Assembly (NCBI GenBank): GCA_947497265.1
Contig: CANMFP010000010.1
Coordinates: 1-64,000 of the forward strand
DNA: 64,000 nt
Reading direction: 5' to 3'
DNA from: an uncultured Isoptericola sp.
Lineage (GTDB): Bacteria; Actinomycetota; Actinomycetes; Actinomycetales; Cellulomonadaceae
Within the stretch, counting starts at the first letter, position 1. The number at the start of each line of letters is the position of its first letter. Below the pieces are notes generated by a model. That model saw only the letters and a program-made list of their open reading frames with translations. It searched no databases and was not told where the DNA came from. The position numbers and the translations under genes were made by a program. Below are positions 39 to 64,000 of this stretch, piece after piece.

Positions 39-68
39 GGCCCCCCACACCACACGGTGCGGGGGGCC
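39..68 (+). terminator. rRNA operon intrinsic terminator
   Basis: GGCCCCCC at 39-46 pairs with GGGGGGCC at 61-68, and the stem continues with ACACC against GGTGC with one mismatch, leaving a 4-nt loop. It lies 14 bases after the 5S end. There is no long U tract, which is common in actinobacteria. Confidence 0.8.
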
Positions 69-189
69 TCGCTGCATGTCAGGAGCGGGTCGCTGTTCCC
101 ACCGGCTCGTCGATCTCGAACATTGCGGCCGACATCCCCGGTCGATGAGCGTGGGACAATCATTCACTGACCGGAACGAGAGGATGACA

Positions 190-1290
190 GTGAACGACAC
201 TCCGCGCGAGGACCGTCCTGCCCGAGGCGAGGACGGCCCGCGACGCCCCCAGGGGCAAGGGCGCGGCGACGGGCCGCGTCGCCCCCGGGACGACCAGCGA
301 CGTTCTGACGGTCCTCGTCGTGACGGAGGCGACGGTCGCGACGGATCGGACCGCCGCGGTGGCGCGCGTCGTGGCGAGACCGACGGCCGTCGCGGTGGCG
401 ACCGCCGCACCGGTACGGCAGGGCGTGGCGGCGCCAGCGCGCGGGGCGGTCGCCAGGACGGCAAGGCGTACGGCGGCGACAGGGGCCGGCGCGACGAACG
501 GCACGGCAGATCGCGTGGCCACAGCCCTCGCAGTGGCGCGGACCGCCCGGTGCGTCCCGAGCGTCCGCGGGACGCGGACCGCACTCCTGACCCCGAGATC
601 CCCGAGGGCGTCGACGCACGCCAGCTCAGCAAGGACGCCCGAGCTCGCCTGCGTGGCCTCAGCAAGGACAACGCCGACGGCGTCGGTGCGCACCTCGTGA
701 TGGCCGGCCGGCTGCTCGACACCGACCCGGAGCAGGCCTACCTGCACGCGCAGGCAGCGGTCCGGCGCGCCGGGAGGATCGACGTCGTCCGGGAGGCCGC
801 GGGTATCGCGGCGTACCGCACGGGACGCTACGCCGAGGCTCTGCGCGAACTGCGCACGGTGCGGCGGCTGAACGGCTCGTCGGAGCACCTGCCGCTCATG
901 GCCGACGCGGAGCGCGGACTGGGACGCCCCGAGCGGGCGATCGCTCTGGCGCAGTCGGAAGAAGCGGCCACGCTCGACTCCGAGGCGCGGACCGAGCTGG
1001 CCATCGTCGTGAGCGGTGCGCGGAGCGACCTGGGCGACCATGACGCTGCGCTGACGGTCCTGGACCGGATTCCGGCCCCGGAGCGCCAGGGTGATCTCGG
1101 CCTGCGCGTGCTGCAGGCGCAGGCCGTCGCTCTCGAGGCGGCGGGTCGGGACGACGAGGCCGCGCGGGTGCTGTCCGGGCTCGACCCGGCGGCCCTGGAC
1201 CGCGCTGCCGGTGTGCCCGAGGGCGACGAGGACTACGTGGTCTACGACGCCTTCGACGAGGAGGCGGACGACGAGGAGGCCGACACGTGA
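190..1290 (+). CDS. RG-rich disordered TPR-repeat protein
   Basis: About 366 aa. The first third (roughly residues 10-150) is low-complexity Arg/Gly/Asp with many RGG and RRGG groups and is almost certainly disordered. From about residue 165 on it is helical, with paired Ala-rich repeats typical of TPR/SEL1-like scaffolds, and it ends in an acidic tail. No catalytic motif is seen. GTG 190 is preferred because GAGAGG (178-183) lies 6 bases upstream; ATG 184 is the alternative. The stop overlaps the GTG of the next gene, so the two are translationally coupled. Position corresponds to the TPR protein Rv1691 in the conserved tlyA-recN-pyrG block. Function unknown; the basic tail suggests nucleic-acid or ribosome contact (inference). 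Confidence 0.8.
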   Translation: MNDTPREDRPARGEDGPRRPQGQGRGDGPRRPRDDQRRSDGPRRDGGDGRDGSDRRGGARRGETDGRRGGDRRTGTAGRGGASARGGRQDGKAYGGDRGRRDERHGRSRGHSPRSGADRPVRPERPRDADRTPDPEIPEGVDARQLSKDARARLRGLSKDNADGVGAHLVMAGRLLDTDPEQAYLHAQAAVRRAGRIDVVREAAGIAAYRTGRYAEALRELRTVRRLNGSSEHLPLMADAERGLGRPERAIALAQSEEAATLDSEARTELAIVVSGARSDLGDHDAALTVLDRIPAPERQGDLGLRVLQAQAVALEAAGRDDEAARVLSGLDPAALDRAAGVPEGDEDYVVYDAFDEEADDEEADT

Positions 1291-2300
1291 GCGCGTCGCT
1301 GCTCGGCAGCGACCGGCCGTTGGCCGACGTGCACGACCTGGCCCTCGTCGACCTCGACGGCGTCGCGTACCAGGGGCGGCTCCCGATCGCGCACGCTGCG
1401 GCGTCGCTGGGTGAGGCGCGCACGAGAGGTCTTCGCCTGGTCTTCGTGACGAACAACGCCTCGCGCGAGCCGGAGGAGGTGGCGAGCCGGCTGACCGGTC
1501 TCGACATCCCGACGGATCCTGACGAGGTCATGACAGCCGCGCAGGCGTGCGCGAACCTGCTCCGGACCCGCCTGGAGCCGGGCGCCAAGGTGCTTGTGGT
1601 GGGCGGCAAGGGACTGACCACGGCCGTGACCGAGGCTGGTTACGAGGTGGTGACGTCGGCCGAGGACGGACCAAACGCCGTCGCCCAGGGCTACTCGCCG
1701 GAGCTCGCCTGGCCGGACCTGGCCGAGGCGGCGTACGCCGTCGCCGGCGGAGCCTGGCACGTGGCGAGCAACCGAGACCTGTCGCTCCCGACGGAGCGAG
1801 GCCTCGCGCCGGGCAACGGGGCGCTGGTGGCCGCGGTCGTCGCCGCCACCGGGGTGGACCCGGACAGCGCCGGCAAGCCCGAGCCGACCATGTATCGCAT
1901 GGCCGTGGAACGGGTCGGCGCCCGGCGCCCGCTGGTGATCGGGGACCGGCTGGACACGGACCTGGCTGGCGCGCGCGCCGGTGGCTATCCCGGCCTGCAC
2001 GTGCTGACGGGCGTCTCGAGCGCTCGAGACGCCGTCCTGGCCGGACCGGGCATGCGCCCCGACTACCTCGGTGCTGACCTGCGGTCGTTGCTCGAGCCGC
2101 ACCCGGCGCCGAGCGAGGCCGAGGACGGCTGGTGGCGGTGCGCAGGACGTTCCGCCCGCGTGGTGGACGGCTCCCTCGAGCTCGACGGCGAGGGCCCTGC
2201 CGGGATCGACGTGGTCCGCGCCGCCTGTGCCGCGGCGTGGTCCGCCGTCGACGACGGGGCGCTGCTGGACCCCGCCGGCGTTCCCGAGCTGACCGCTTGA
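1287..2300 (+). CDS. HAD-IIA family hydrolase (NagD/PGP-like phosphatase)
   Basis: 337 aa. HAD motif I is DLDGVAYQG with the nucleophile Asp near residue 23, motif II is the FVTNNAS segment, and motif IV is GDRLDTDLAGA near residue 215, after the KPEP lysine of motif III. This is the class IIA cap arrangement of p-nitrophenylphosphatase/phosphoglycolate-type phosphatases. The last 80 residues after the HAD core form an extra domain also seen in actinobacterial orthologues such as Rv1692, a proposed glycerol-3-phosphate phosphatase; I assign only the family. GTG start overlaps the preceding stop (GTGA). Confidence 0.9.
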   Translation: MSASLLGSDRPLADVHDLALVDLDGVAYQGRLPIAHAAASLGEARTRGLRLVFVTNNASREPEEVASRLTGLDIPTDPDEVMTAAQACANLLRTRLEPGAKVLVVGGKGLTTAVTEAGYEVVTSAEDGPNAVAQGYSPELAWPDLAEAAYAVAGGAWHVASNRDLSLPTERGLAPGNGALVAAVVAATGVDPDSAGKPEPTMYRMAVERVGARRPLVIGDRLDTDLAGARAGGYPGLHVLTGVSSARDAVLAGPGMRPDYLGADLRSLLEPHPAPSEAEDGWWRCAGRSARVVDGSLELDGEGPAGIDVVRAACAAAWSAVDDGALLDPAGVPELTA

Positions 2301-2345
2301 CGGCACCCGCCCGTGCGTCGTGCCGGGGCCGCCGCCCCCAGCAGG

Positions 2346-2351
2346 TAGCGT
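2346..2351 (+). promoter_or_regulatory. candidate -10 box for the tlyA operon
   Basis: TAGCGT sits about 35 bases before the ATG of the 60-aa gene in the 84-bp gap after the HAD gene. No clear -35 is visible. Confidence 0.3.
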
Positions 2352-2384
2352 TGCCCCGGGACGGACGAGCAGCGAGGAGGGGAC

Positions 2385-2567
2385 ATGTCGCAGGACGCGG
2401 AGGCGCCGCGCGCGCCGGCACCGGAACGTCCTGAGTCACCTCTTGCGCCGCTCGACGGCCTGGACGAGCTCTCGACCGACCAGCACGTCGCACGCTTCGA
2501 GGCGGTCCACGACCGCCTGCGAGCGCGACTCGACGACGGCCCGGCGGACGACGAGGCGGGTGACTGA
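2385..2567 (+). CDS. conserved small actinobacterial protein next to tlyA
   Basis: 60 aa, acidic, with a Pro-rich start and an amphipathic helix (about residues 28-50, LSTDQHVARFEAVHDRLRA). A strong Shine-Dalgarno (GAGGAGGGG) precedes the ATG. The stop overlaps the start of tlyA (TGATG), so it is coupled to it. It occupies the place of the short hypothetical protein Rv1693 in mycobacteria. No domain is recognised; the helix suggests a protein partner, perhaps TlyA (inference from position only). Confidence 0.8.
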   Translation: MSQDAEAPRAPAPERPESPLAPLDGLDELSTDQHVARFEAVHDRLRARLDDGPADDEAGD

Positions 2568-3457
2568 TGCCCGAGCGTGCCGACGCCGAGCTCGTGCGGC
2601 GTGGCCTGGCCCGGTCGCGCAAGCAGGCCTCGGTCCTGATCGCCGCCGGCCGCGTCCGGATGGACGAGACGGTCGTGGCCAAGTCCTCGACCCCGGTACC
2701 GTCCGGTCGTGCACTGGTCGTCGAACCTGATCCTGACGACCCCGGCTACGCGTCCAGAGCCGGGGGTAAGCTCGCGAGCGCCCTCGAGGCTCTCGCGGGC
2801 GACCCCGCGGGACGCGAGCTGACCGACCGCCTGCCGGGCGGGGACTGCCTGGACCTGGGCGCCTCGACCGGAGGTTTCACCGATGTGCTGCTGCGGCGCG
2901 GCGCCGCGCACGTGACGGCGCTCGACGTCGGCCACGACCAGCTCGTGCCGGCGCTGCGGACAGACCCGCGCGTGACGGTGCGCGAGGGGCTCAACGTGCG
3001 ACACCTGGGGGTCGACGACCTGGGCTCGCCACCGGACGTCGTCGTGGGTGACCTGTCGTTCATCTCGCTCCGGCTCGTCGTCTCCGCCGTCGCCGGGGTG
3101 ATGGCACGTGGCTCGTTCGCCCTGCTGCTGGTCAAGCCGCAGTTCGAGGTCGGTCGTAACCGGCTCGGCAGCGGTGGGGTCGTCCGCGACCCCGACCTGC
3201 ACGTCGGGTCGGTGGTGGACGTCGCCGCGTCGGCGGCAGCCGCGGGCCTCACCGTCCTCGGCGTCGTCCCGAGCGCGCTGCCGGGCCCCAGCGGCAACCG
3301 AGAGTACTTCTGCTGGATGCGCCGGGCGGACGCGGCGCCGGTCGACCGCAGCGCGTTGACGGAAGCCGCGCGAGCCGCTGTCGACTGGCAGCCCGGCGGT
3401 GGGGGCCTTCCGCCGGTGGTCCCGGTGCCGGCGGGCGTCTCCGGAGGTGCGTCATGA
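2567..3457 (+). CDS. tlyA: TlyA family rRNA 2'-O-methyltransferase
   Basis: 296 aa. An S4 RNA-binding domain covers about residues 3-65 (RADAELVRRGLARSRKQ), followed by a Rossmann methyltransferase of FtsJ type with the SAM loop CLDLGASTGGFTD near residue 95, the DVGHDQL acidic strand and VVGDLSFIS near residue 160. TlyA methylates ribose 2'-OH of 16S C1409 and 23S C1920 in mycobacteria, which gives capreomycin sensitivity; dual or single specificity cannot be told here. It starts on the preceding stop and overlaps nadK by 4 bases. Also called hemolysin A in older annotation. Confidence 0.93.
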   Translation: MPERADAELVRRGLARSRKQASVLIAAGRVRMDETVVAKSSTPVPSGRALVVEPDPDDPGYASRAGGKLASALEALAGDPAGRELTDRLPGGDCLDLGASTGGFTDVLLRRGAAHVTALDVGHDQLVPALRTDPRVTVREGLNVRHLGVDDLGSPPDVVVGDLSFISLRLVVSAVAGVMARGSFALLLVKPQFEVGRNRLGSGGVVRDPDLHVGSVVDVAASAAAAGLTVLGVVPSALPGPSGNREYFCWMRRADAAPVDRSALTEAARAAVDWQPGGGGLPPVVPVPAGVSGGAS

Positions 3458-4410
3458 CCCGTCGCGTGCTCATCGTGACCCACGGCGGCCGCCCTGAGGC
3501 CGTCGCCGCCATGGCCGAGGCGGTGGCGGAGCTGGAGAGCGCAGGCTTCGAGGTGGCCCTGCACGACGACGATCTCGCCGAGACCTTCGGCGACCAGATG
3601 TCGGCCACGCGGGTGCGCGAGGGCGTGGCCGAGTCGGAGATCGTGATGGTGCTCGGTGGTGACGGCACGATCCTGCGTGCCGCCGAGCTCACCCACGGCA
3701 CCGACGTCCCCCTGCTCGGGGTCAACCTGGGCCACGTGGGCTTCCTCGCCGAGTCGGAGCGCGACAACCTCCACGACGCCGTGCGCCGGGTCGCCGCGCG
3801 CGAGTACGTGGTTGAGGAGCGCAGCGTCGTCGACGTCGTGGTGCACCGGCCGGGGGAGAGCGAGCCGGTCACCGGGTGGGCCCTCAACGAGGCCACCGTG
3901 GAGAAGGCGCAGCGGGACCGGATGATCGAGGTCGCGATCGCTGTCGACGAGCGCCCCGTCAGCTCGTTCGGCTGCGACGGCGTGGTCGTGTCCACCGCGA
4001 CCGGGTCGACAGCCCACGCCTTCTCGGCGGGCGGGCCGATCATGTGGCCGGACGTGGACGCGGTGCTGCTGGTGCCGCTCTCCGCCCACGCGCTGTTCTC
4101 GCGTCCCTTGGTGATCGGTCCGCGCTCGGAGTTCACGGTCGACGTGCTGGCGCGCAGCCCGCTGCCCGCGGTGCTGACCTGTGACGGGCGGCGCAGCATC
4201 GACCTCCCGGTAGGGACAAGGGTGCAGGTACGGCGAGGGGCGGTGCCGCTGCGGTTCGCGCGGCTGGCGCACGCGCCCTTCAGCGACCGGCTCGTCTCGA
4301 AGTTCAACCTGCCGGTCATCGGCTGGCGCGAGGCCGCGGGTGAAGCGGCGGCGCGCCGGGCGGCGCGGTACGCCGTCGACCAGGACGACCAGGACGACAA
4401 GGAGGCATGA
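3454..4410 (+). CDS. nadK: NAD kinase
   Basis: 318 aa, ATP/polyphosphate-dependent NAD+ kinase making NADP+. Diagnostic motifs are the GGDGTILRAAE loop near residue 66, the NE-x-TVEK segment near residue 145 and the SCDG-type/TGSTAHAFSAGGP loop near residues 170-190. Start ATGA overlaps tlyA and the stop overlaps recN, so tlyA-nadK-recN form one translational unit. The C-terminal 20 residues are an acidic tail (QDDQDDKEA) outside the fold. Confidence 0.95.
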   Translation: MTRRVLIVTHGGRPEAVAAMAEAVAELESAGFEVALHDDDLAETFGDQMSATRVREGVAESEIVMVLGGDGTILRAAELTHGTDVPLLGVNLGHVGFLAESERDNLHDAVRRVAAREYVVEERSVVDVVVHRPGESEPVTGWALNEATVEKAQRDRMIEVAIAVDERPVSSFGCDGVVVSTATGSTAHAFSAGGPIMWPDVDAVLLVPLSAHALFSRPLVIGPRSEFTVDVLARSPLPAVLTCDGRRSIDLPVGTRVQVRRGAVPLRFARLAHAPFSDRLVSKFNLPVIGWREAAGEAAARRAARYAVDQDDQDDKEA

Positions 4411-51843: not shown

Positions 51844-51853
51844 CGTGGTGCGG

Positions 51854-51859
51854 CACCAT
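51854..51859 (+). promoter_or_regulatory. -10-like hexamer of the xylanase gene
   Basis: CACCAT, exactly 6 bases before GTG 51866. It supports this start over GTG 51845. Confidence 0.35.
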
Positions 51860-51865
51860 GGTCGT

Positions 51866-53137
51866 GTGACTCTCTTCACCGCACCCACCGACCACACGCC
51901 CGACCCCTCCCTGGCGCACCGGCGCGCGCAGGCGGAGGTGACCGTCACCGGGCCGGACGGCGTGCCGCTGGCCGGCACCGACGTCGTCGTGGCCCAGAGG
52001 CGGCACGCGTTCGGGTTCGGCTGCATCGGCTTCGAGCTCGTGGACCACGCGAACGGCCGTTCTGCCGACCCTGCCTACGACAACGATTTCGCGGACCGCT
52101 GGCTCGACGTCTTCAACATCGCCACGCTGCCGTTCTACTGGGGCACGTTCGAGCCCGCCGAGGGCGCGCCCCGCACGGCCGAGACGCTGGCCGCGGCCCG
52201 CTGGTTCGCCGACCGCGGCGTGACCGTCAAGGGGCACCCGCTGGTGTGGCACACGGTGCAGCCGCGGTGGCTCCTCGGCAGGCCGCTCGACGAGGTCGAA
52301 CGGTTGCAGCGCGAGCGCATCCGGCGCGACGTCGGCGACTTCGCCGGGGTCATCGACACCTGGGACGCGATCAACGAGACCGTCATCATGCCGGTGTTCA
52401 CCGCCGAGGAGAACGCGATCACGCCGCTCGCGCGGCTCAAGGGCCGCGTGGAGACGATCCGGATGGCGTTCGACGAGGCGCGGGCCACCAACCCGGGCGC
52501 CACCCTGCTGCTCAACGACTTCGACATGTCGACGGCCTACGAGTGCCTCATCGAGGCGGTGCTCGAGGCGGGCATCCGGATCGATCGGCTGGGCCTGCAG
52601 TCGCACATGCACCAGGGCTACTGGGGCGAGGAGAAGACGCTGCGCATCCTGGAGCGGTTCGCGCGGTACAACATCCCGATCCACCTCACCGAGAGCACGC
52701 TGCTGTCCGGCGAGGTGATGCCGGAGCACGTCGTCGACCTCAACGACTGGCAGGTGGAGTCCTGGCCGTCGACCCCGGAGGGGGAGGAGCGTCAGGCCGA
52801 CGAGGTGGAGCGGCACTACCGCACCCTGCTCAGCCACCCGGCGGTGGAGGTCGTCAACTACTGGGGGCTCGGGGACCGCGGCATGTGGCTGGGTGCCCCG
52901 GGCGGGCTGCTGCGCGCGGACGGGTCGCCCAAGCCGTCCTACGACCGGCTGCGCTCCCTCGTCAAGGGCGAGTGGTGGTATGCACCGATGACGCTGCGCA
53001 CCGACGACGCCGGACGGGTCCGCGTCGAGGGGTTCCTCGGCGACTACGAGGTCTCGCTGCCCGACGGCGGCGACGCGGCGGCGCTGAGCCTCGACCGGGC
53101 GGGGGAGCAGACGGCGCAGGTGCGCCTGGCGGGCTGA
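51866..53137 (+). CDS. intracellular GH10 endo-1,4-beta-xylanase
   Basis: 423 aa. GH10 motifs: GHPLVWH near residue 130, the acid/base Glu in WDAINE near residue 169 and the nucleophile Glu in PIHLTES near residue 278. An extra N-terminal beta domain (about residues 15-50) occurs. There is no signal peptide, which is unusual among GH10 enzymes and implies cytoplasmic action on imported xylo-oligosaccharides. The C-terminal 60 residues form a small beta domain. Start chosen from the -10-like spacing; 51845 gives 7 more residues. Confidence 0.9.
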   Translation: MTLFTAPTDHTPDPSLAHRRAQAEVTVTGPDGVPLAGTDVVVAQRRHAFGFGCIGFELVDHANGRSADPAYDNDFADRWLDVFNIATLPFYWGTFEPAEGAPRTAETLAAARWFADRGVTVKGHPLVWHTVQPRWLLGRPLDEVERLQRERIRRDVGDFAGVIDTWDAINETVIMPVFTAEENAITPLARLKGRVETIRMAFDEARATNPGATLLLNDFDMSTAYECLIEAVLEAGIRIDRLGLQSHMHQGYWGEEKTLRILERFARYNIPIHLTESTLLSGEVMPEHVVDLNDWQVESWPSTPEGEERQADEVERHYRTLLSHPAVEVVNYWGLGDRGMWLGAPGGLLRADGSPKPSYDRLRSLVKGEWWYAPMTLRTDDAGRVRVEGFLGDYEVSLPDGGDAAALSLDRAGEQTAQVRLAG

Positions 53138-56309: not shown

Positions 56310-56840
56310 TCACCGCTGGTAGGTCCCGGTGAGCGTCGCCCGCGCGAGCGTGTGGAAGTAGACGTTGAACGCGGCGTGGACGTTCGTGTTCTCGGGCGTC
56401 AGCTCCAGGGAGTCCACGTCGAGGGCGTGCACGGCGAAGATGTAGCGGTGCGCGTGGTCCCCGGGAGGGGGACCGGCGCCCTCGAAGCCCTGCGCGCCGC
56501 CGTCGGACGTGAGTTGGAAGGCGCCGTCGGGCAGGCCCGAGCCGTCGGCCGCTCCCGCGCCGCGAGGCAGCGACGTCACCGAGGTCGGCAGATCGAGGAC
56601 GTGCCAGTGCCAGTAGCCCGACGGCGTGGGGGCGTCCGCGTCGAAGCAGCTCACCACGAACGACCTCGTGGCCGCGGGGAAGCCGGACCAGGACAGCTCC
56701 GGCGAGATGTTGCCGCCGTCGACCGCGTGGTCCGACGACATCGGCTCGCCGGGCGAGACCTCCGGGCTGGTCAGCTCGAACGTCGCGGGGACGGGCAGGA
56801 GCGAGTAGGGGTCGGGGGGCACGGGGCGGGTGAAGTCCAT
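56310..56840 (-). CDS. YbhB/YbcL family PEBP (Raf kinase inhibitor-like) protein
   Basis: 176 aa. PEBP motifs: FELTSPEVSPG near residue 22, GGNISPELSWSGFPA near residue 43, CFDADAPTPSGYWHWHVLDLP near residue 66 with the His of the ligand pocket, and GPPPGDHAHRYIFAVHALD near residue 125. Cytoplasmic, no signal peptide. Function in bacteria unknown. Confidence 0.9.
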   Translation of the reverse strand: MDFTRPVPPDPYSLLPVPATFELTSPEVSPGEPMSSDHAVDGGNISPELSWSGFPAATRSFVVSCFDADAPTPSGYWHWHVLDLPTSVTSLPRGAGAADGSGLPDGAFQLTSDGGAQGFEGAGPPPGDHAHRYIFAVHALDVDSLELTPENTNVHAAFNVYFHTLARATLTGTYQR

Positions 56841-56945: not shown

Positions 56946-56951
56946 TAGCGT
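56946..56951 (+). promoter_or_regulatory. -10 box of the catabolic operon
   Basis: TAGCGT lies 9 bases before the TetR element at 56961, so the operator covers the start of transcription. Confidence 0.4.
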
Positions 56952-56960
56952 CAATCCAAC

Positions 56961-56978
56961 AAACCGACCGGCCGGTAC
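56961..56978 (+). promoter_or_regulatory. TetR-type operator, copy 1 (SDR-TetR operon)
   Basis: AAACCGACCGGCCGGTAC is 15/18 identical to the reverse complement of 60234-60251. It is partly palindromic around a CCGG core. It lies 62 bases before the SDR start. Confidence 0.7.
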
Positions 56979-57040
56979 GGCTGGCCCCGTGTCGCGACGC
57001 CGCGACGCGAGATCGACGACGACGTTCGAGAGGTGGCGCG

Positions 57041-57781
57041 GTGCGCAGGTTCGCAGGGAAGGTCGCGCTCGTCACGGGCGCGAGCCGGGGCATCGGCCTC
57101 GCGGTGGCGCACCGGCTCGTGGCCGAGGGCGGGCAGGTCGTGCTCACGGGGCGCAAGCCGGAGGCGCTCGAGGAGGCGGTGGCGGCGCTCGGCGCTGACA
57201 ACGCCTCCGCCGTCGCCGGCAAGGTCGACGACGCCGCGCACCGCGAGCAGGTCTTCGCCCACGTGGCCGAGCGGTACGGGCGCCTTGACCACCTGGTCAA
57301 CAACGCGGGGATCAACCCCGCCTGGGGCCCGGTGCTCGAGGTGGAGCCGTCGGTCGTGCGCAAGATCCTCGACGTCAACGTGGTCGCCGCCCTCGAGTGG
57401 ACGCGCGACGCCGTCGCCGCCGGTCTCCGGTCGTCGATCGTCAACACCGCCTCGATCTCCGGCACCTCCACGAGCCCCAACATCGCCTTCTACGGCGTCT
57501 CGAAGGCCGCGCTGATCAACCTCACGGGACAGCTCGCCCAGGAGCTCGCGCCCCGGTTGCGTGTCAACGCCGTCGCCCCGGCCGTCGTCAAGACTCACCT
57601 GTCGCGTGCGCTGTACGAGGGGCGCGAGGACGACGTGGCGGCCGGCTACCCCCTGGGCCGCCTCGGTGTGCCCGACGACGTGGCCGGGCCGATCGCGTTC
57701 CTGCTCTCCGACGACGCGGCCTGGATCACCGGCCAGACACTCCGGATCGACGGTGGCGCGTCCATCGTGCCCGTCGGGTGA
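57041..57781 (+). CDS. SDR family oxidoreductase
   Basis: 246 aa. TGASRGIG near residue 13, NNAG near residue 87, catalytic Ser in TASISG near residue 137 and YGVSK near residue 151. The FabG-like subgroup that often oxidises hydroxyacyl or alcohol groups. First gene of the SDR-TetR-quinone reductase-SDR operon; GTG 57041 follows GAGAGG. The next gene (tetR) starts 11 bases later. Confidence 0.88.
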   Translation: MRRFAGKVALVTGASRGIGLAVAHRLVAEGGQVVLTGRKPEALEEAVAALGADNASAVAGKVDDAAHREQVFAHVAERYGRLDHLVNNAGINPAWGPVLEVEPSVVRKILDVNVVAALEWTRDAVAAGLRSSIVNTASISGTSTSPNIAFYGVSKAALINLTGQLAQELAPRLRVNAVAPAVVKTHLSRALYEGREDDVAAGYPLGRLGVPDDVAGPIAFLLSDDAAWITGQTLRIDGGASIVPVG

Positions 57782-57792
57782 AGGATGGACCC

Positions 57793-58374
57793 ATGAAGAC
57801 CACCCACGTCGCCGACTCGGTCCTGCAGGCCGCCCTCGACCTCTTCGCCACCCAGGGCTATGCGACCACGAGCGTCCAGCAGATCGTCGAGGCCGCCGGC
57901 GTCACCAAGGGCGCCATGTATCACTACTTCCAGTCCAAGGACGATCTCCTCTTCGCGATCTACGACCGCATGCTGTCGTTGCAGAAGCGGCACCTCGAGG
58001 AGATCGTCGCGCGCGGTGGCGCCACGACGGACGTCCTGCGCACGGTGTGCGTCGACGTCGTCGAGACCTCCATCGACCTGCTGGCCGAGGGCACCGTGTT
58101 CTTCCGGAGCATGCACATGCTCAAGGACCCTCGGCGCAAGGACGTCATCCAGCGGCGGCGCGAGTACCACGACGAGTTCGCCGCGCTCATCGCCCAGGGC
58201 CAGGCCGAGGGAGCCCTGCGGACCGACGTCCCGCGATCCGTGCTCATCGCCCACTTCTTCTCCGACGTGCACTACCTGTCCTACTGGTACTCGCCGTCGG
58301 GTCCCGAGACCAAGACAGAGGTCGCGAACCAGCTGACCGACCTCTTCCTGCGCAGCATCACCGTGGAGAACTGA
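57793..58374 (+). CDS. TetR regulator of the catabolic/liv cluster
   Basis: 193 aa. TetR helix-turn-helix at residues 10-55 (QGYATTSVQQIVEAAGVTKGAMYHYFQSKDDLLF). The C-terminal half (IDLLAEGTVFFRSMHMLKDPRRKDVI) is like KstR2/FadR-type regulators that sense acyl-CoA. Embedded between an SDR and a quinone reductase and probably binds the two 18-bp elements at 56961 and 60234. TGATG overlap with the next gene. Confidence 0.9.
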   Translation: MKTTHVADSVLQAALDLFATQGYATTSVQQIVEAAGVTKGAMYHYFQSKDDLLFAIYDRMLSLQKRHLEEIVARGGATTDVLRTVCVDVVETSIDLLAEGTVFFRSMHMLKDPRRKDVIQRRREYHDEFAALIAQGQAEGALRTDVPRSVLIAHFFSDVHYLSYWYSPSGPETKTEVANQLTDLFLRSITVEN

Positions 58375-59372
58375 TGACCGAGACCATGCGCGCCTGGCGC
58401 GTCACCCGCAACGGCGAACCGACCGAGGTCATGAGCCTCGACGAGGTCGACCGCCCCGAGCCCGGGCCGGGGGAGGTGCTCGTCCGCACCCGTGCCGTGG
58501 CCGTGAACTTCCCCGACGTCCTGCTCGCCCGTGGTACCTACCAGGTGCGCCCGGAGCTGCCGTTCGTGCCGGGCATCGAGCTGTGCGGCGATGTCGTCGC
58601 GCTCGGCGAGGGGGTCGACCGCACCGGCCGCGTGGCCGTGGGCCAGCGCGTCGTGGGGTCGGCCATCGGGGTGCTGTCCGAGTTCGCGGTGCTGCCGGCG
58701 GAGTCGTGCCGGCTCGCCCCGGACTCGCTCGACGACGCCCAGGCCGCAGCACTCACCATCGCCTACCAGACCGCCTGGTTCGGGCTGCACCGCCGTGCGG
58801 GGCTGGCGTCCGGCGAGACGCTCCTCGTCCACGCCGCCGCGGGCGGCGTGGGCACCGCCGCCTGCCAGCTCGGCGCGGCGGCCGGTGCGACGGTGATCGG
58901 TGTCGTGGGCAGCGAGGCCAAGGCCGACGTCGCCCGCACGGCCGGGGCCGAGCACGTCCTGGTCCGCTCCGGTGATCTGGCAGCTCAGGTCAAGGAGCTG
59001 ACCGGCGGCGCCGGCGCCGACGTGGTCTTCGACCCGGTCGGTGGCGCGTCGTTCGAGGCGTCGACCAAGTGCATCGCGTTCGAGGGCAGGATCGTCGTCG
59101 TCGGTTTCGCGAGCGGCGAGGTCGCCCCGGTCCGCGCGAACCACGCGCTGGTGAAGAACTACGGCGTGCTGGGGCTGCACTGGGCGCTCTACCAGCAGCG
59201 TGATCCCGCCCTCGTCGACGCGGCGCACGCGGAGCTGACCCGGCTGGCCGGCTCGGGCGCCGTGGTGCCCGTCGTGGCCGACGTCGTGCCGTTCGACCGT
59301 GCGCCTGACGCGGTCCGCCGCCTCGCCGAGGGCGCCACGACGGGGCGCCTGGTCGTCCGCGTGGCCGCCTGA
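58374..59372 (+). CDS. NADPH:quinone oxidoreductase family (zinc-free MDR) protein
   Basis: 332 aa. MDR fold with AVAVNFPDVLLARGTYQ near residue 45, cofactor motif HAAAGGVGTAACQLGAAAGA near residue 155 and DPVGGASFEA near residue 218. No Zn ligands, so a quinone reductase/enoyl-CoA reductase-like enzyme. The exact substrate is unknown. Starts on the tetR stop; 42 bases before the last SDR. Confidence 0.9.
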   Translation: MTETMRAWRVTRNGEPTEVMSLDEVDRPEPGPGEVLVRTRAVAVNFPDVLLARGTYQVRPELPFVPGIELCGDVVALGEGVDRTGRVAVGQRVVGSAIGVLSEFAVLPAESCRLAPDSLDDAQAAALTIAYQTAWFGLHRRAGLASGETLLVHAAAGGVGTAACQLGAAAGATVIGVVGSEAKADVARTAGAEHVLVRSGDLAAQVKELTGGAGADVVFDPVGGASFEASTKCIAFEGRIVVVGFASGEVAPVRANHALVKNYGVLGLHWALYQQRDPALVDAAHAELTRLAGSGAVVPVVADVVPFDRAPDAVRRLAEGATTGRLVVRVAA

Positions 59373-59414
59373 CCCGGCTCGGCCCACCCAGATCCACTCG
59401 TGCGAAGGAGCACC

Positions 59415-60152
59415 GTGACCACTGACCTCACCGACCGCGTCGCGATCGTCACGGGCGGTGCCCGGGGGATCGGCGCCGCCTACGTCCGGGCGCTGCACGA
59501 CGCCGGCGCTCGCGTCCTCGTCGCCGACCTGCTGGAGACGGAGGGGGCCGCGCTCGCGCACGAGCTGGGGGAGCGTGCCCGGTTCGCGGTCCTCGACGTG
59601 ACCGACGAGGACGGCTGGACGCGTGTGGTCGACGACACGGTCGCGAGCTGGGGCGCCGTGGACGTGCTGATCAACAACGCAGGGATCGCCAACGCCGGCC
59701 CGATCGAGCACTACCCACGCACGAAGTGGGACGCCGTCATCGCGGTGAACCTCACCGGGACCTATCTCGGCTGCCGAGCGGTCGTCCCGGCGATGAAGGC
59801 CGCGGGCCGCGGCTCGATCATCAACATCTCGTCCGTCGAGGGGATGCGCGGCAGCACCCACCTGCACGGCTACGTGGCCTCGAAGTTCGGGGTGCGGGGT
59901 CTGACGAAGTCGCTGGCCGTCGAGCTCGGCGCGGACGGGATCCGCGTCAACTCGGTGCACCCGGGCTTCATCGACACGGAGATGACGGCGAAGATCGACC
60001 CGTCCGGGCTGCCGATCCCGCTGCGACGGGGCGGGCGTGCCGAGGACCTGACGGGCACGGTGCTCTACCTGGCCGGGGAGGCGTCCGCCTACGTGACCGG
60101 GGCGGAGATCGTGGTCGACGGCGGCATGATCAACGGCGTGGGCCACCTCTGA
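59415..60152 (+). CDS. SDR family oxidoreductase (3-alpha/20-beta-hydroxysteroid dehydrogenase-like)
   Basis: 245 aa. TGGARGIG near residue 13, NNAG near residue 83, Ser in NISSVEG near residue 135 and YVASK near residue 149. The VHPGFIDTEMTAK segment and overall order resemble steroid/3-hydroxyacyl dehydrogenases, but this level of SDR annotation is only a guess. GAAGGAG lies before GTG 59415. Last gene of the catabolic operon. Confidence 0.85.
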   Translation: MTTDLTDRVAIVTGGARGIGAAYVRALHDAGARVLVADLLETEGAALAHELGERARFAVLDVTDEDGWTRVVDDTVASWGAVDVLINNAGIANAGPIEHYPRTKWDAVIAVNLTGTYLGCRAVVPAMKAAGRGSIINISSVEGMRGSTHLHGYVASKFGVRGLTKSLAVELGADGIRVNSVHPGFIDTEMTAKIDPSGLPIPLRRGGRAEDLTGTVLYLAGEASAYVTGAEIVVDGGMINGVGHL

Positions 60153-60233
60153 CCTTCTGGTCTGCGCTCTGACCTGCGCAGACGCTGTCCCTGAGCACCC
60201 ACGTCACAGCCGTGCAACAACTGTCAGAATGAC

Positions 60234-60263
60234 ATACCGTCCAGTCGGTTTATGCGCTAGTGT
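60234..60263 (+). promoter_or_regulatory. TetR-type operator copy 2 and -10 box of the liv operon
   Basis: 60234-60251 is the reverse complement of AAACCGACTGGACGGTAT, 15/18 identical to the copy at 56961. TAGTGT (60258-60263) follows 6 bases later as a -10 box, so the bound regulator would block it. Leader to the livG ATG is about 22 nt with GAAGAGG. Confidence 0.7.
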
Positions 60264-60291: not shown

Positions 60292-61023
60292 ATGTCCAGC
60301 AACACTCCGCGACTCCAGGTCGACGGACTCACGGTCGCGTTCGGTGGTCTCACCGCGCTCGACGACGTCAGCTTCACCGTGGGCGACACCGAGACAGTGG
60401 CGCTCATCGGTCCGAACGGCGCCGGCAAGACGACGGTGTTCAACGCCGTCTGCTCGCTGGTGAAGCCCCGCGCCGGAAACCTGCGCATCGACGGCCGGCC
60501 CGCGCCCACGGCCCCGACCGGGCTGGCCGCGCGCGGTGTCTCGCGCACCCTGCAGGGACTCGGCCTGTTCGCCGGGATGACGGTCCTCGAGAACGTGCTC
60601 GTGCCGCTGGTCGGTCCTGAAAGGCCGTCCGTCTCGCCCGCCGAGGCGGCATCGGCGGTGCTTGAACGGCTCGGTCTGTCGGCGCAGGCGGGCACACCCG
60701 TCGACGCCTTGCCGTACCCGGAGCGCAAGCGTGTCGCGCTGGCGAGGGCGCTCGTCACGCGGCCGCGCCTGCTGCTCCTCGACGAACCCGCCGGCGGCCT
60801 GGGTGCCGAGGACATCGACGACCTCGCGGAGATCGTCCGCGGGCTCTCCTCGGACGGTTGCTCGGTGCTCCTGGTGGAGCACCACGTGGACTTCGTCATG
60901 GACGTCGCGGACCGCGTCGTCGTCCTCGACTTCGGGCGGGTGGTGGCCTGCGGGACACCCGACGAGGTGCGGTCCGACCCGGCCGTCGAGGCCGCCTACC
61001 TGGGGCTGGAGGCTGCGGCATGA
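60292..61023 (+). CDS. livG: branched-chain-type ABC ATPase LivG
   Basis: 243 aa. Walker A GPNGAGKTTVF near residue 41, signature region LPYPERKRVALA near residue 140 (the LPYG-type variant of LivG), Walker B LLLLDEPAGGLG near residue 160. Component of a HAAT-family importer. ATG 60292 is chosen because GAAGAGG lies 5 bases upstream; GTG 60286 is alternative. Overlaps livF by 4 bases. Confidence 0.9.
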   Translation: MSSNTPRLQVDGLTVAFGGLTALDDVSFTVGDTETVALIGPNGAGKTTVFNAVCSLVKPRAGNLRIDGRPAPTAPTGLAARGVSRTLQGLGLFAGMTVLENVLVPLVGPERPSVSPAEAASAVLERLGLSAQAGTPVDALPYPERKRVALARALVTRPRLLLLDEPAGGLGAEDIDDLAEIVRGLSSDGCSVLLVEHHVDFVMDVADRVVVLDFGRVVACGTPDEVRSDPAVEAAYLGLEAAA

Positions 61024-61775: not shown

Positions 61776-62653
61776 TGGATCGTCTCGCCTTCCTCCTCGC
61801 CACGGGCCTCGCCCGCGGCCTCGTCATCGCGCTCTTCGCCCTGTCGCTGGTCATCATCTGGCGTGCGGCCCGCATCGTGAACTTCGCCCAGGCCGCCATG
61901 GCGATCGTCGCGGTCTACGTCGCCTTCGCCGTGACCCAGGCCACCGGGTCCTTCTGGCTCGGCTTGGCCGCAGCCCTCGTCACCGGCGCGCTCGTCGGCG
62001 CCGTCGTCGAACGCTGGCTCATCCGGCTCGTGCCCAGCGGCACGCCGCTGCCCGGCATGATCGTGGCGATCGGGCTGGTGATGATCCTCCAGTCCGCCAT
62101 CAGCATCATCTTCGGCCCGAAGCACCGGCCCATGGCCGCGCCCTTCAGCGAGCAGCCGTTCACCGTCGGCGGCGTCGCCGTGCTCTCGCCCTACGACCTG
62201 TTCATCCTCCTCGTCGCGCTCGGCGTGGTCGCCGCCCTCGGCCTGCTCTTCAACGGCACCACGCTCGGGCTGCAGATGCGAGCGTCGGCGATGGCGCCGG
62301 AGGTGTCCCGGCTGCTGGGGGTCCGGGTGCCGCGCATGATCACCCTGGGCTGGATGCTGTCGTCCGGCGTCGCGGCCCTCGCCGTGCTGCTCCTCGTCCC
62401 CACCGAGCTCGGGCTCAACGCCCACAGCGCGGACATCCTGTTCGTCCACGCCTTCACGGTGGCGGTGCTGGGCGGGCTCGACTCGCCGAGCGGCGCGCTC
62501 GTCGGCGGGATCGTCGTCGGGATCCTCATCAGCCTGGTCACCGGGTTCCTCGGCGCCGGGCTCGCGCCGATCGCGGTGCTCGTCCTGCTCACCGTCGTCC
62601 TCCTCGTCCGGCCGGGCGGCATCTTCGCAGCCAAGGAGGCGCGAACCGCATGA
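61775..62653 (+). CDS. livH: branched-chain-type ABC permease LivH
   Basis: 292 aa, about eight membrane helices. RIVNFAQAAMAIVAVYVAF near residue 33 and MRASAMAPEVSRLLGVRV near residue 170 are family signatures. Forms the channel with livM. ATG overlaps livF stop. Confidence 0.92.
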   Translation: MDRLAFLLATGLARGLVIALFALSLVIIWRAARIVNFAQAAMAIVAVYVAFAVTQATGSFWLGLAAALVTGALVGAVVERWLIRLVPSGTPLPGMIVAIGLVMILQSAISIIFGPKHRPMAAPFSEQPFTVGGVAVLSPYDLFILLVALGVVAALGLLFNGTTLGLQMRASAMAPEVSRLLGVRVPRMITLGWMLSSGVAALAVLLLVPTELGLNAHSADILFVHAFTVAVLGGLDSPSGALVGGIVVGILISLVTGFLGAGLAPIAVLVLLTVVLLVRPGGIFAAKEARTA

Positions 62654-63729
62654 CCGCCATCATCAGCTCTCGGACCCGCGGGATCGTGCTGCGTGCACTC
62701 GCGCTCACCGTTCTCGCGCTGGCCGCGACGTTCCTGCTCGACTCGTACCGGAACTACCAGCTCGCCGTGGTCGCCGCCGTCTTCTGCGCGACGGCCGGGC
62801 TCACGCTGCTGGTGGGCCTCACCGGACAGCTCTCCCTCGGCCATGCCGTCCTGATGGCCTGCGGCGGCTACGGCTACGCCCTGGCCGCGGGACTCGCCGC
62901 CGAGGCGGACCTCAGCGGGATCCTGCGCTTCGCTCTCGGGATCCTCGGAGCGGTGGTCGTCGCCGGAGGCGTCGGTGGGCTCCTCGGGCTCGCCGGAGCA
63001 CGGCTGCGCGGTCCATACCTGGCAGGCCTGACGCTGGCGCTCGTCATCGCGTTGCCGGCCTTCGCCTCGCAGGTCCCCGGCCTGGGCGGCGACCAGGGCC
63101 GCAGCGTCCCCTTCGAACCCGTCCCGGACTGGCTCGCCCCGGTGCTGTTCAGCACCGAGCAGTGGCACGCGTGGATCGCCGTCCTCGTCGCGGCCGTCGC
63201 GGTCACCCCGCTGGCCGTCCTGCGGTCCGGGAAGGCCGGCCTGCGCATGCGGGCGGTCCACGGCGACGAGGTCGCCGCACGCCTGGCCGGCATCTCACCC
63301 GGCCGCGTCAAGACGAACGCCTTCGTCGCGGGTGCGCTCTCGGCCGGTCTCGGTGGTGCGGTGCTCGCGATCGCCACTCAGACGGTCAGCCCGGGGGGCT
63401 ACGACCTCGCCTTCTCGCTCCTGCTGCTCGTGGCCGTCGTCATCGGCGGGCTCGGCAGCATCGGGGGAGCCGCCGTGGGCGCCGTGCTCGTGGTCCTGCT
63501 GCCGTGGCTCATCGACACCCTCACCACGTCGGTGGGCCTGCCCGCCGACCTCGAGCAGCGGCTCTCCGGGAACCTCGTGGTCCTCGTCTTCGGAGCGTTG
63601 CTCGTCCTCGTCACCGTCGTCTGGCCCGGCGGGCTGTCTCATGCCTTCGCCGGACGCTTCGCATCCCTGTCCGCGCGGCTCCGCCGGCGGTCCGACCAGC
63701 ACGTCCCGCAATCACTCACAGAGAGGTGA
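62650..63729 (+). CDS. livM: branched-chain-type ABC permease LivM
   Basis: 359 aa, about ten membrane helices. GLTGQLSLGHAVLMACGGYGYA near residue 55 and MRAVHGDEVAARLAGISPGRVKTNAF near residue 200 are LivM signatures. ATGA overlap with livH. Confidence 0.92.
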   Translation: MTAIISSRTRGIVLRALALTVLALAATFLLDSYRNYQLAVVAAVFCATAGLTLLVGLTGQLSLGHAVLMACGGYGYALAAGLAAEADLSGILRFALGILGAVVVAGGVGGLLGLAGARLRGPYLAGLTLALVIALPAFASQVPGLGGDQGRSVPFEPVPDWLAPVLFSTEQWHAWIAVLVAAVAVTPLAVLRSGKAGLRMRAVHGDEVAARLAGISPGRVKTNAFVAGALSAGLGGAVLAIATQTVSPGGYDLAFSLLLLVAVVIGGLGSIGGAAVGAVLVVLLPWLIDTLTTSVGLPADLEQRLSGNLVVLVFGALLVLVTVVWPGGLSHAFAGRFASLSARLRRRSDQHVPQSLTER

Positions 63730-63734
63730 CTCCC

Positions 63735-64000
63735 ATGCGGACCACTCACACCACACCGCGCAACCGCGCTCGTACCGTCGTCGCGGCCACCGGTGCCGTC
63801 GCCGTCGGCCTCACCCTGTCCGCCTGCGGCGGTGCCGACGAGGCGACACCCGGTGTCTCCGAGGACACCGTCACCGTCGGCACCCACCAGCCGCTGACCG
63901 GCCCGGCCGCCGCCGGGTACTCCTCGATCTCCGCCGCCACCAGCGCGTACTTCGACTACGTCAACGCCAACGGTGGTGTCCACGGCCGCTCCATCGAGTA
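63735..64000 (+). CDS. branched-chain-type substrate-binding lipoprotein (LivK/J-like), partial
   Basis: First 88 codons only; continues beyond the window. A basic N terminus and hydrophobic stretch end in the lipobox LSAC (Cys about residue 31). The mature protein begins the type 1 periplasmic-binding fold (VTVGTHQPLTGPAA, YFDYVNANGGVHGRSIEY). This binding protein sets the substrate specificity of the importer, so the missing part matters. GAGAGGTG precedes the ATG. Confidence 0.88.
   Translation, partial: MRTTHTTPRNRARTVVAATGAVAVGLTLSACGGADEATPGVSEDTVTVGTHQPLTGPAAAGYSSISAATSAYFDYVNANGGVHGRSIE

What the first reader, a model, noticed from the sequence alone, without database searches (positions are those of the whole stretch)
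56961..60263. Shared 18-bp operator links the SDR/quinone reductase operon to a liv-type importer
AAACCGACYGGMCGGTAY occurs at 56961-56978 and, inverted, at 60234-60251, each beside a -10-like hexamer. One TetR gene lies in the first operon. This makes a two-operon regulon in which uptake and oxidation of the same compound are co-controlled. The importer is then probably not for amino acids but for a hydrophobic or aromatic acid.
Basis: partly seen in the sequence, partly recalled or inferred. Interest (0 to 1): 0.7.

Follow-up and report, generated by a model that had tools for sequence, protein, structure and literature searches.

The report
TetR regulon for 4-hydroxy-acid breakdown
Two matching DNA switches in a soil bacterium belong to a larger, conserved set in which one repressor appears to control the uptake and breakdown of 4-hydroxy fatty-acid-like compounds through a bacterial version of an enzyme pair recently characterised in mammals.

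Summary
The two 18-mers are the only matches in the window and form the core of a 22-bp palindrome (about nCAWACCGACYRGWCGGTAYGn). The site precedes the SDR-TetR-QOR-SDR operon and livG in relatives; beyond the window also a kinase/acyl-CoA-dehydrogenase operon and an ADH-SDR operon; elsewhere in the genome a carboxylesterase and a CoA ligase. It tracks the TetR gene (31 of 32 TetR-positive, 10 of 118 TetR-negative sampled family genomes), and the TetR tracks the dehydrogenase (32 of 32 against 1 of 118). Kinase and dehydrogenase are a split ACAD10/11 (LvaA/LvaC-like) pair keeping the published residues for 4-phosphoacyl-CoA chemistry. Best reading: a TetR repressor of 4-hydroxy- or 4-oxo-acid import and breakdown, probably induced by an acyl-CoA; an aromatic substrate is not indicated. 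Where the cluster's own CoA ligase is missing, an unlinked ligase carries the operator (6 of 6 genus genomes, against 0 of 5 that keep it; probably one evolutionary event). Two further genomic sites do not fit the pathway. DNA binding, inducer and exact substrate are untested.

The parts
56959..56980 (.). operator 1 (22-bp palindrome, 28.1 bits), just downstream of a -10-like TAGCGT (56946-56951), upstream of SDR1-tetR1-QOR-SDR2
   Evidence: a site at the same place in 29 of 30 fetched TetR1-ortholog loci
57041..57781 (+). SDR1, short-chain dehydrogenase (NCBIfam PRK07231 above cutoff)
   Evidence: Pfam PF13561 2e-54; NF005559 276 bits, cutoff 215
57793..58374 (+). TetR1, TetR-family regulator with TetR_N and TetR_C_24
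   Evidence: PF00440 3.6e-19, PF17932 8.2e-24; predicted fold closest to KstR2, with PfmR and AibR within 1.4 Z
58374..59372 (+). QOR, zinc-binding-dehydrogenase/quinone-reductase family protein
   Evidence: PF00107 5.9e-27; TIGR02824 216 bits, below cutoff 297
59415..60152 (+). SDR2, short-chain dehydrogenase
   Evidence: PF13561 3.4e-63; best NCBIfam trans-4-hydroxycyclohexanecarboxylate dehydrogenase, 241.5 bits, below cutoff 400
60232..60253 (.). operator 2 (30.4 bits), 4 bp upstream of a -10-like TAGTGT (60258-60263), in front of livG
   Evidence: a site before livG in 37 of 37 scorable loci
60292..61023 (+). livG-type ABC ATPase
   Evidence: PF00005, PF12399
61020..61775 (+). livF-type ABC ATPase
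   Evidence: PF00005
61775..62653 (+). livH-type permease
   Evidence: PF02653 1.4e-26
62650..63729 (+). livM-type permease
   Evidence: PF02653 1.5e-29
63735..64000 (+). substrate-binding protein (cut by window end; continues to contig position 65015)
   Evidence: PF13458 3.3e-08; full gene in L025; best solved relative 4n03

Best explanation
The 22-bp palindrome is the operator of TetR1 (57793-58374). TetR1 sits on promoters, covering the start or the -35/spacer region, and represses (1) SDR1-tetR1-QOR-SDR2, which includes itself, (2) livGFHM-SBP, (3) APH1-ACAD1 and (4) ADH-SDR3-MaoC of one cluster, plus in this genome an unlinked carboxylesterase and an unlinked CoA ligase. The genes form a plausible route. 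The esterase frees, and the liv-type importer brings in, a 4-hydroxy or 4-oxo acid. SDR or QOR enzymes adjust the 4-oxo/4-hydroxy state and the ligase makes the CoA ester. APH1 phosphorylates the 4-hydroxyl and ACAD1 removes the phosphate to give 2-enoyl-CoA. MaoC, SDR3 and thiolase finish beta-oxidation. An acyl-CoA intermediate probably releases TetR1. Shown by computation: operator, its conservation, co-occurrence, gene homologies and active-site residues. Inferred: binding by TetR1, repression, inducer, substrate class and each enzyme step.
For: Operator at the SDR1 promoter in 29 of 30 ortholog loci and before livG in 37 of 37 (two genomes counted twice). Before APH1 in 19 of 23; in the 4 exceptions APH1 follows SDR2 or SBP in the same direction. 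Strict-site co-occurrence with TetR1: 31 of 32 against 10 of 118 genomes. ACAD1 with TetR1: 32 of 32 against 1 of 118. In more distant actinobacteria (TetR 44-49% identity), 49 of 55 loci hold a site of 20 bits or more against 0 of 55 for the reversed matrix. ACAD1 and APH1 hit ACAD11 structures (2wbi 1.1e-129; 8v3v 7.5e-50); the R626, R631, H634, R637 and D753 equivalents are kept in every ACAD1 ortholog whose alignment covers them, and the kinase Asp in every covered APH1 (35 + 39 ACAD1 and 31 + 37 APH1 loci; residues from passages of PMC12440821). TetR1 fold nearest to KstR2, with PfmR and AibR close; MbdR also listed. MbdR uses ATACN10GTAT, answers to 3-methylbenzoyl-CoA and controls a putative ABC importer and a CoA ligase (PMC4424350, passages).
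Confidence: 0.72

Rival explanations
1. Same TetR1 regulon, but the substrate is not a 4-hydroxy acid: for example a branched-chain, alicyclic or aromatic acid for which APH1-ACAD1 does other chemistry.
For: SDR2's best NCBIfam model is a hydroxycyclohexanecarboxylate dehydrogenase; the SBP fold list contains several aromatic-acid binders; MbdR, a related regulator, works on 3-methylbenzoate.
Against: SDR2 is below that model's cutoff; ACAD1 and APH1 keep the published ACAD10/11 residues; no ring-cleavage or ring-reduction gene was seen on reading the cluster (by inspection).
Confidence: 0.2
2. Another regulator binds the palindrome: TetR2 of the cluster, or the C2 TetR whose own promoter carries the site (both have a TetR_C_36 domain).
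For: A site of 20.7-28.1 bits lies before the C2 TetR gene in 4 of 4 genus genomes that have it; TetR2 lies between regulated operons; the two share PF18598.
Against: The C2 TetR is in only 4 of 18 genus genomes, while all 11 genus genomes with TetR1 have a strict site; loci without a TetR2 hit in the fetched stretch (L078, L079, L155, L177) keep the sites; the TetR2 promoter lacks the site in 15 of 19 loci, and in 3 of the other 4 it shares the SDR1 site.
Confidence: 0.08
3. The liv-type importer is an ordinary branched-chain amino acid importer placed under this operator for indirect reasons.
For: liv architecture and BCA_ABC_TP_C domain; 3lkb with bound valine is tied for best SBP fold match.
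Against: 37 of 37 scorable livG promoters share the catabolic operator; sequence search prefers 4n03 (6.9e-21 against 3.2e-11 for 3lkb), which the PDB title calls a fatty acid binder. Weak: the NCBIfam liv equivalogs all score below cutoff.
Confidence: 0.12
4. The two 18-mers are a chance match.
For: 1 of 100 shuffles of the window gave two matches at up to 3 mismatches.
Against: Conservation at both promoters across families and co-occurrence with TetR1.
Confidence: 0.01

Closest known systems
MbdR of Azoarcus sp. CIB (3-methylbenzoate; PMC4424350, passages seen)
   Same: TetR repressor, 18-bp ATACN10GTAT operator, several promoters of one cluster including a putative ABC importer and a CoA ligase, acyl-CoA inducer.
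PfmR/TTHB023 of Thermus thermophilus (PMC7022988, passages seen)
   Different: Targets in the passages seen are fatty-acid metabolism genes; no liv importer or ACAD10/11 pair is mentioned in them.
KstR2, AibR, BkaR and Bacillus FadR TetR regulators
   Different: Other pathways; their operators were not compared here.
lva operon of Pseudomonas putida (PMC9628823, PMC10164729, PMC12440821, passages seen)
   Same: Kinase plus ACAD plus CoA ligase plus dehydrogenase acting on 4-oxo/4-hydroxy acids.
   Different: Single operon with LvaB, activated by sigma-54 regulator LvaR; here a TetR-type site, split operons and a liv-type importer.
Mammalian ACAD10/ACAD11 (PMC12440821, passages seen)
   Same: Kinase and ACAD domains match APH1 and ACAD1 with the named residues.
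   Different: Fused in one protein.

Membership tests
Acyl-CoA-responsive TetR repressors (KstR2/PfmR/AibR/MbdR type) | TetR N-terminal HTH and all-helical ligand domain | tested here: met
Acyl-CoA-responsive TetR repressors (KstR2/PfmR/AibR/MbdR type) | Palindromic operator at own promoter | tested here: met
   29 of 30 ortholog loci; binding itself not tested
Acyl-CoA-responsive TetR repressors (KstR2/PfmR/AibR/MbdR type) | ATACN10GTAT core as in MbdR | tested here: met
   Exact at the APH1 and ADH sites of this genome; AAACN10GTAC and AAACN10GTAT variants at SDR1 and livG
Acyl-CoA-responsive TetR repressors (KstR2/PfmR/AibR/MbdR type) | Binds an acyl-CoA and releases DNA | not testable with these tools
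   needs purified protein; DarR relatives with nucleotide ligands are about as near by sequence
ACAD10/11 (LvaA-LvaC) 4-hydroxyacyl-CoA kinase/dehydrogenase pair | ACAD domain with R626, HCMR motif and catalytic D753 (mouse ACAD11 numbering) | tested here: met
   ACAD1 aligned to 8v3u/8v3v keeps RLGPGRIHHCMR and ADGPDEVH; kept in every covered ortholog of 35 near and 39 distant loci
ACAD10/11 (LvaA-LvaC) 4-hydroxyacyl-CoA kinase/dehydrogenase pair | APH-type kinase with catalytic Asp | tested here: met
   PF01636 8.3e-49; APH1 has HGDYRLDN where ACAD11 has HGDFKLDN, altered in 8v3u; Asp kept in every covered ortholog of 31 near and 37 distant loci
ACAD10/11 (LvaA-LvaC) 4-hydroxyacyl-CoA kinase/dehydrogenase pair | Activity on 4-hydroxyacyl-CoA | not testable with these tools
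   -
lva operon | sigma-54 activator LvaR divergent from one operon | tested here: not met
   cluster holds two TetR genes and split operons; no sigma-54 activator among the genes read there, by inspection only
lva operon | LvaB kinase partner | not tested
   APH1 and ACAD1 are 2 bp apart, so no LvaB lies between them; elsewhere not searched
LIV-type (HAAT) ABC importer | Two ATPases, two BPD_transp_2 permeases, one type-1 SBP | tested here: met
   SBP fold
LIV-type (HAAT) ABC importer | Branched-chain amino acid specificity | tested here: inconclusive
   NCBIfam liv models below cutoff; SBP fold list mixes fatty-acid, amino-acid and aromatic binders

The most novel reading that the evidence does not exclude
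This TetR-operator pair is a general actinobacterial switch for ACAD10/11-type (phosphorylate-then-eliminate) 4-hydroxy-acid catabolism, and in the Isoptericola clade the regulon was repaired by rewiring: after the cluster's own CoA ligase was lost, an only distantly similar, unlinked CoA ligase gained the operator.
Probability: 0.5. Interest if true: 0.72.

Novelty: new variant of a known kind. Interest (0 to 1): 0.6.

Why it matters
If true, it gives a regulator, operator, importer and gene set for 4-hydroxy-acid (levulinate, lactone or hydroxy-lipid type) catabolism in Gram-positive actinobacteria. The bacterial system met in the papers seen is the sigma-54-controlled lva operon of Pseudomonas, and the mammalian enzymes were reported in 2024-2025. 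The operator reads out which ligase, esterase and importer serve the pathway, and is a possible inducible promoter for a biomass-derived chemical. The ligase swap would be a readable case of compensatory operator gain.

Tried and rejected
Considered and rejected: chance match; a plain two-operon regulon; TetR2 or the C2 TetR as sole binder; an aromatic-acid pathway as first choice (no ring genes seen on reading).

Led nowhere or stayed weak. The SBP fold search gave a tie between fatty-acid and valine binders. Paper searches for an already described TetR regulon of ACAD10/11 or LvaA-type genes in actinobacteria showed none in the listings (12-20 rows listed of 41 to 3,552 matching papers, open-licence library only), so absence from print is not shown. 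The paper on the lva operon itself (PMC5705400) is not held. The 4N03 paper search listed no paper using that code. Genome hits inside coding genes (C1:589368, C3:115355, C2:312590, C5:60224) were read as background. Sites at C2:120339 and C2:129837 were not explained. The search for unlinked sites covered only up to 3 mismatches to the 18-mer and one exact 20-mer pattern, so others may be missed.

Dropped rows and choices. Of 32 candidate sites in 30 TetR loci, 3 (L039@1070, L052@1634, L053@740) were left out of the matrix because they lie off the SDR1 promoter; L065 had none. The matrix used 22 distinct sites and was made symmetric with their reverse complements. The CAW-only count (30 of 32 against 0 of 118) is a filter chosen. 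Regions were mostly chosen because a pattern match lay in them, so the ADH sites seen there are not an unbiased count. In one search two loose motif expressions matched 39 and 25 of 44 loci; that count included non-orthologous dehydrogenases and exact flanking letters, and was replaced by the aligned-residue count. The genome scan keeps the best 80 of 581 relatives, so distribution beyond those is not counted. The names ligase, QOR and QsdR-like were at first my reading; Pfam later gave the families.
Full report
Observation. The two 18-mers are at the stated coordinates and are the only matches in the window at up to 3 mismatches. In the whole genome (G000, 3.77 Mb, 41 contigs; the window is contig C10:1-64000) they are the only exact copies. 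Two identical looser copies, ATACCGACCGCGCGGTAT, lie at C10:67412 and C10:75107, just beyond the window.

The cluster beyond the window. Reading C10:56800-76500 (families) gives SDR1-tetR1-QOR-SDR2, livGFHM-SBP, then on the minus strand ACAD1 and APH1 (phosphotransferase family), a 4HBT_2 thioesterase and TetR2, then ACAD2 and thiolase on the plus strand, then on the minus strand a second APH-like gene (by eye), MaoC, SDR3 and ADH. The sites at 67412 and 75107 lie upstream of APH1-ACAD1 and of ADH-SDR3-MaoC. So four operons of one 18-kb cluster carry the site.

Conservation. TetR1 has orthologs of 66-100% identity in 32 of 150 genomes sampled from the family. Of 30 fetched ortholog loci, 29 carry the palindrome about 0.8-0.95 kb upstream of tetR1, where SDR1 starts. 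A symmetric 22-bp matrix from the 22 distinct sites was then used on other promoters. In 46 loci (this genome, 20 relatives by handle, 25 named records) it finds a site of at least 14 bits before SDR1 in 44 of 44 (lowest 14.7 in L157 and 16.2 in L173), before livG in 37 of 37 (36 at 23 bits or more; L174 16.7) and before APH1 in 19 of 23 scorable cases. Two genomes are counted twice (L154 with L068, L160 with L080, recognised from contig lengths). Many SDR1 sites were training sites; the livG and APH1 sites were not. In the four APH1 exceptions (L085, L086, L169, L171) APH1 follows SBP or SDR2 in the same direction and can share their operator. ADH had a site in 2 of 3 scorable cases; L085 had none, and in L175 the site counted is the SDR1 one. 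Named records include Isoptericola halotolerans, Microbacterium, Cellulomonas, Nesterenkonia, Leifsonia, Promicromonospora and Cellulosimicrobium (capped at the best 80).

Deeper conservation. The other 55 loci (Streptomyces, Nocardiopsis, Lentzea, Microbispora and others; TetR 44-49% identity) mostly keep the site: 49 of 55 hold one of 20 bits or more, 33 one of 23 or more, while the reversed matrix finds none of 20 in any of the 55. APH1 of at least 45% identity was scored in 36; 27 have a site directly upstream, 8 do not and 1 is at a contig edge. All 8 are Nocardiopsis records; in 7 of them (not L221) one search shows a site before SDR1 leading into APH1-ACAD1. A site stands within 350 bp of tetR1 itself in only 20 of 55. 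No close livG hit was seen there. So the constant core is TetR1, APH1 and ACAD1.

Who binds. A strict 20-mer pattern matches 41 of 150 family genomes: 31 of 32 with TetR1 and 10 of 118 without (Fisher P 2.6e-22, not corrected for phylogeny). The one miss, G123, has looser sites at SDR1 and livG. One of the 31, G148, matches only by a site type shared with TetR1-negative relatives; keeping only CAW starts, a filter chosen afterwards, gives 30 of 32 against 0 of 118. ACAD1 is found in 33 of 150: all 32 with TetR1 and one (G044) of 118 without. TetR2 is a poor candidate, since loci with no TetR2 hit in the fetched stretch keep the sites. In genus g15 (L078, L079, L155), where TetR2 was not found, a TetR1-type site of 23.1 bits stands before ACAD2, while 1 of 16 loci with TetR2 has a site there.

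What the core does. ACAD1's best solved relatives are ACAD11 structures (2wbi 1.1e-129, 8v3u 3.1e-128), closely followed by an uncharacterised bacterial protein (4hr3), and APH1 matches the kinase domain of the same protein (8v3v 7.5e-50) after two bacterial entries (9o56, 3dxp). The 2025 ACAD10/11 paper (PMC12440821; passages read) names R626, H634 and R637 (HCMR motif) and catalytic D753 as residues for 4-phosphoacyl-CoA chemistry, R631 as general, and a kinase catalytic Asp. The alignments show ACAD1 with RLGPGRIHHCMR and ADGPDEVH, and APH1 with HGDYRLDN; mapping of numbers to letters is mine, helped by the altered letters visible in 8v3u and 8v3v. All these residues are kept wherever the alignment covers them: 35 of 35 near ACAD1 loci; 37 to 39 of 39 distant ones, the rest uncovered; APH1 Asp 30 of 31 and 36 of 37, the rest uncovered. 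This makes the pair a split ACAD10/11, as LvaA-LvaC is in Pseudomonas putida (PMC9628823 and PMC10164729, passages). With ligase, MaoC, SDR3 (FabG-like) and thiolase (PRK07851, 729 bits, above cutoff 580), the cluster can take a 4-hydroxy acid into beta-oxidation. Chain length and natural substrate are not determined.

Unlinked members. C5:146905 (26.7 bits) lies about 33 bp before a carboxylesterase gene (PF00135 2.7e-56). Of 7 matches in 18 genomes searched, the 5 of 68% identity or more have the site and the 2 of 46-47% do not. C2:676549 (23.9 bits) lies between a CoA ligase and an acyl-CoA-dehydrogenase-like gene. Two more sites do not fit: C2:120339 (24.3) before a PucR-type gene and C2:129837 (20.7) before a TetR_C_36 regulator; the latter is conserved in the 4 of 18 genus genomes that have that gene.

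Ligase swap. In 10 of 19 relatives' stretches a CoA ligase lies between SBP and ACAD1 (in an eleventh, after ACAD1); in this genome and 5 close relatives it does not. Among 18 genus genomes, 11 have TetR1. The 6 with no cluster-type ligase at E<=1e-150 (G000, G084, G021, G042, G116, G110) all have a site of 21-24 bits starting about 82-84 bp before the unlinked ligase. The 5 with it (G132, G127, G103, G145, G149) do not, nor do 2 genomes without TetR1 that keep the unlinked ligase (G094, G072). The ligase tree puts the six and G094 in one clade (support 100/99), so this is probably a single gain, with absence or loss in G094, and the Fisher value 0.002 overstates the evidence. Outside the genus, G002 and G077 keep a cluster ligase and lack the site at the unlinked one, as expected; G117 is an exception, with no ligase found in its 20-kb stretch and no site at the unlinked ligase.

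Verdict. The regulon is inferred with good confidence, the 4-hydroxy-acid class with fair confidence; inducer and binding remain to be tested.

Noticed in passing
G000:C2:129837 (L027), L116/L245, L243, L244: A TetR1-type site (20.7-28.1 bits) precedes a TetR_C_36 regulator gene in all 4 genus genomes that have that gene; role unknown.
   Followed up: partly
G000:C2:120339 (L034:2338): A 24.3-bit site lies at the end of a LuxR-family gene and upstream of a PucR-type gene; conservation not tested.
   Followed up: no
G000:C2:606270 (L031:2271): A perfect palindrome TACCGTCCAGACGGTA lies upstream of what looks by eye like an MFS exporter gene; probably another regulator's operator.
   Followed up: no
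L078:15370, L079:15384, L155:17324: Where TetR2 was not found, a TetR1-type site stands before ACAD2-thiolase, a possible second regulatory handover; all three are one genus or near it.
   Followed up: partly
window 51845-53137 (+): Glycoside hydrolase family 10 gene (PF00331 2.4e-27), some 4 kb before the first operator; no link shown.
   Followed up: no
window 56310-56840 (-): PEBP-family gene (PF01161 6.2e-35) immediately upstream of the first operator, transcribed away from it.
   Followed up: no
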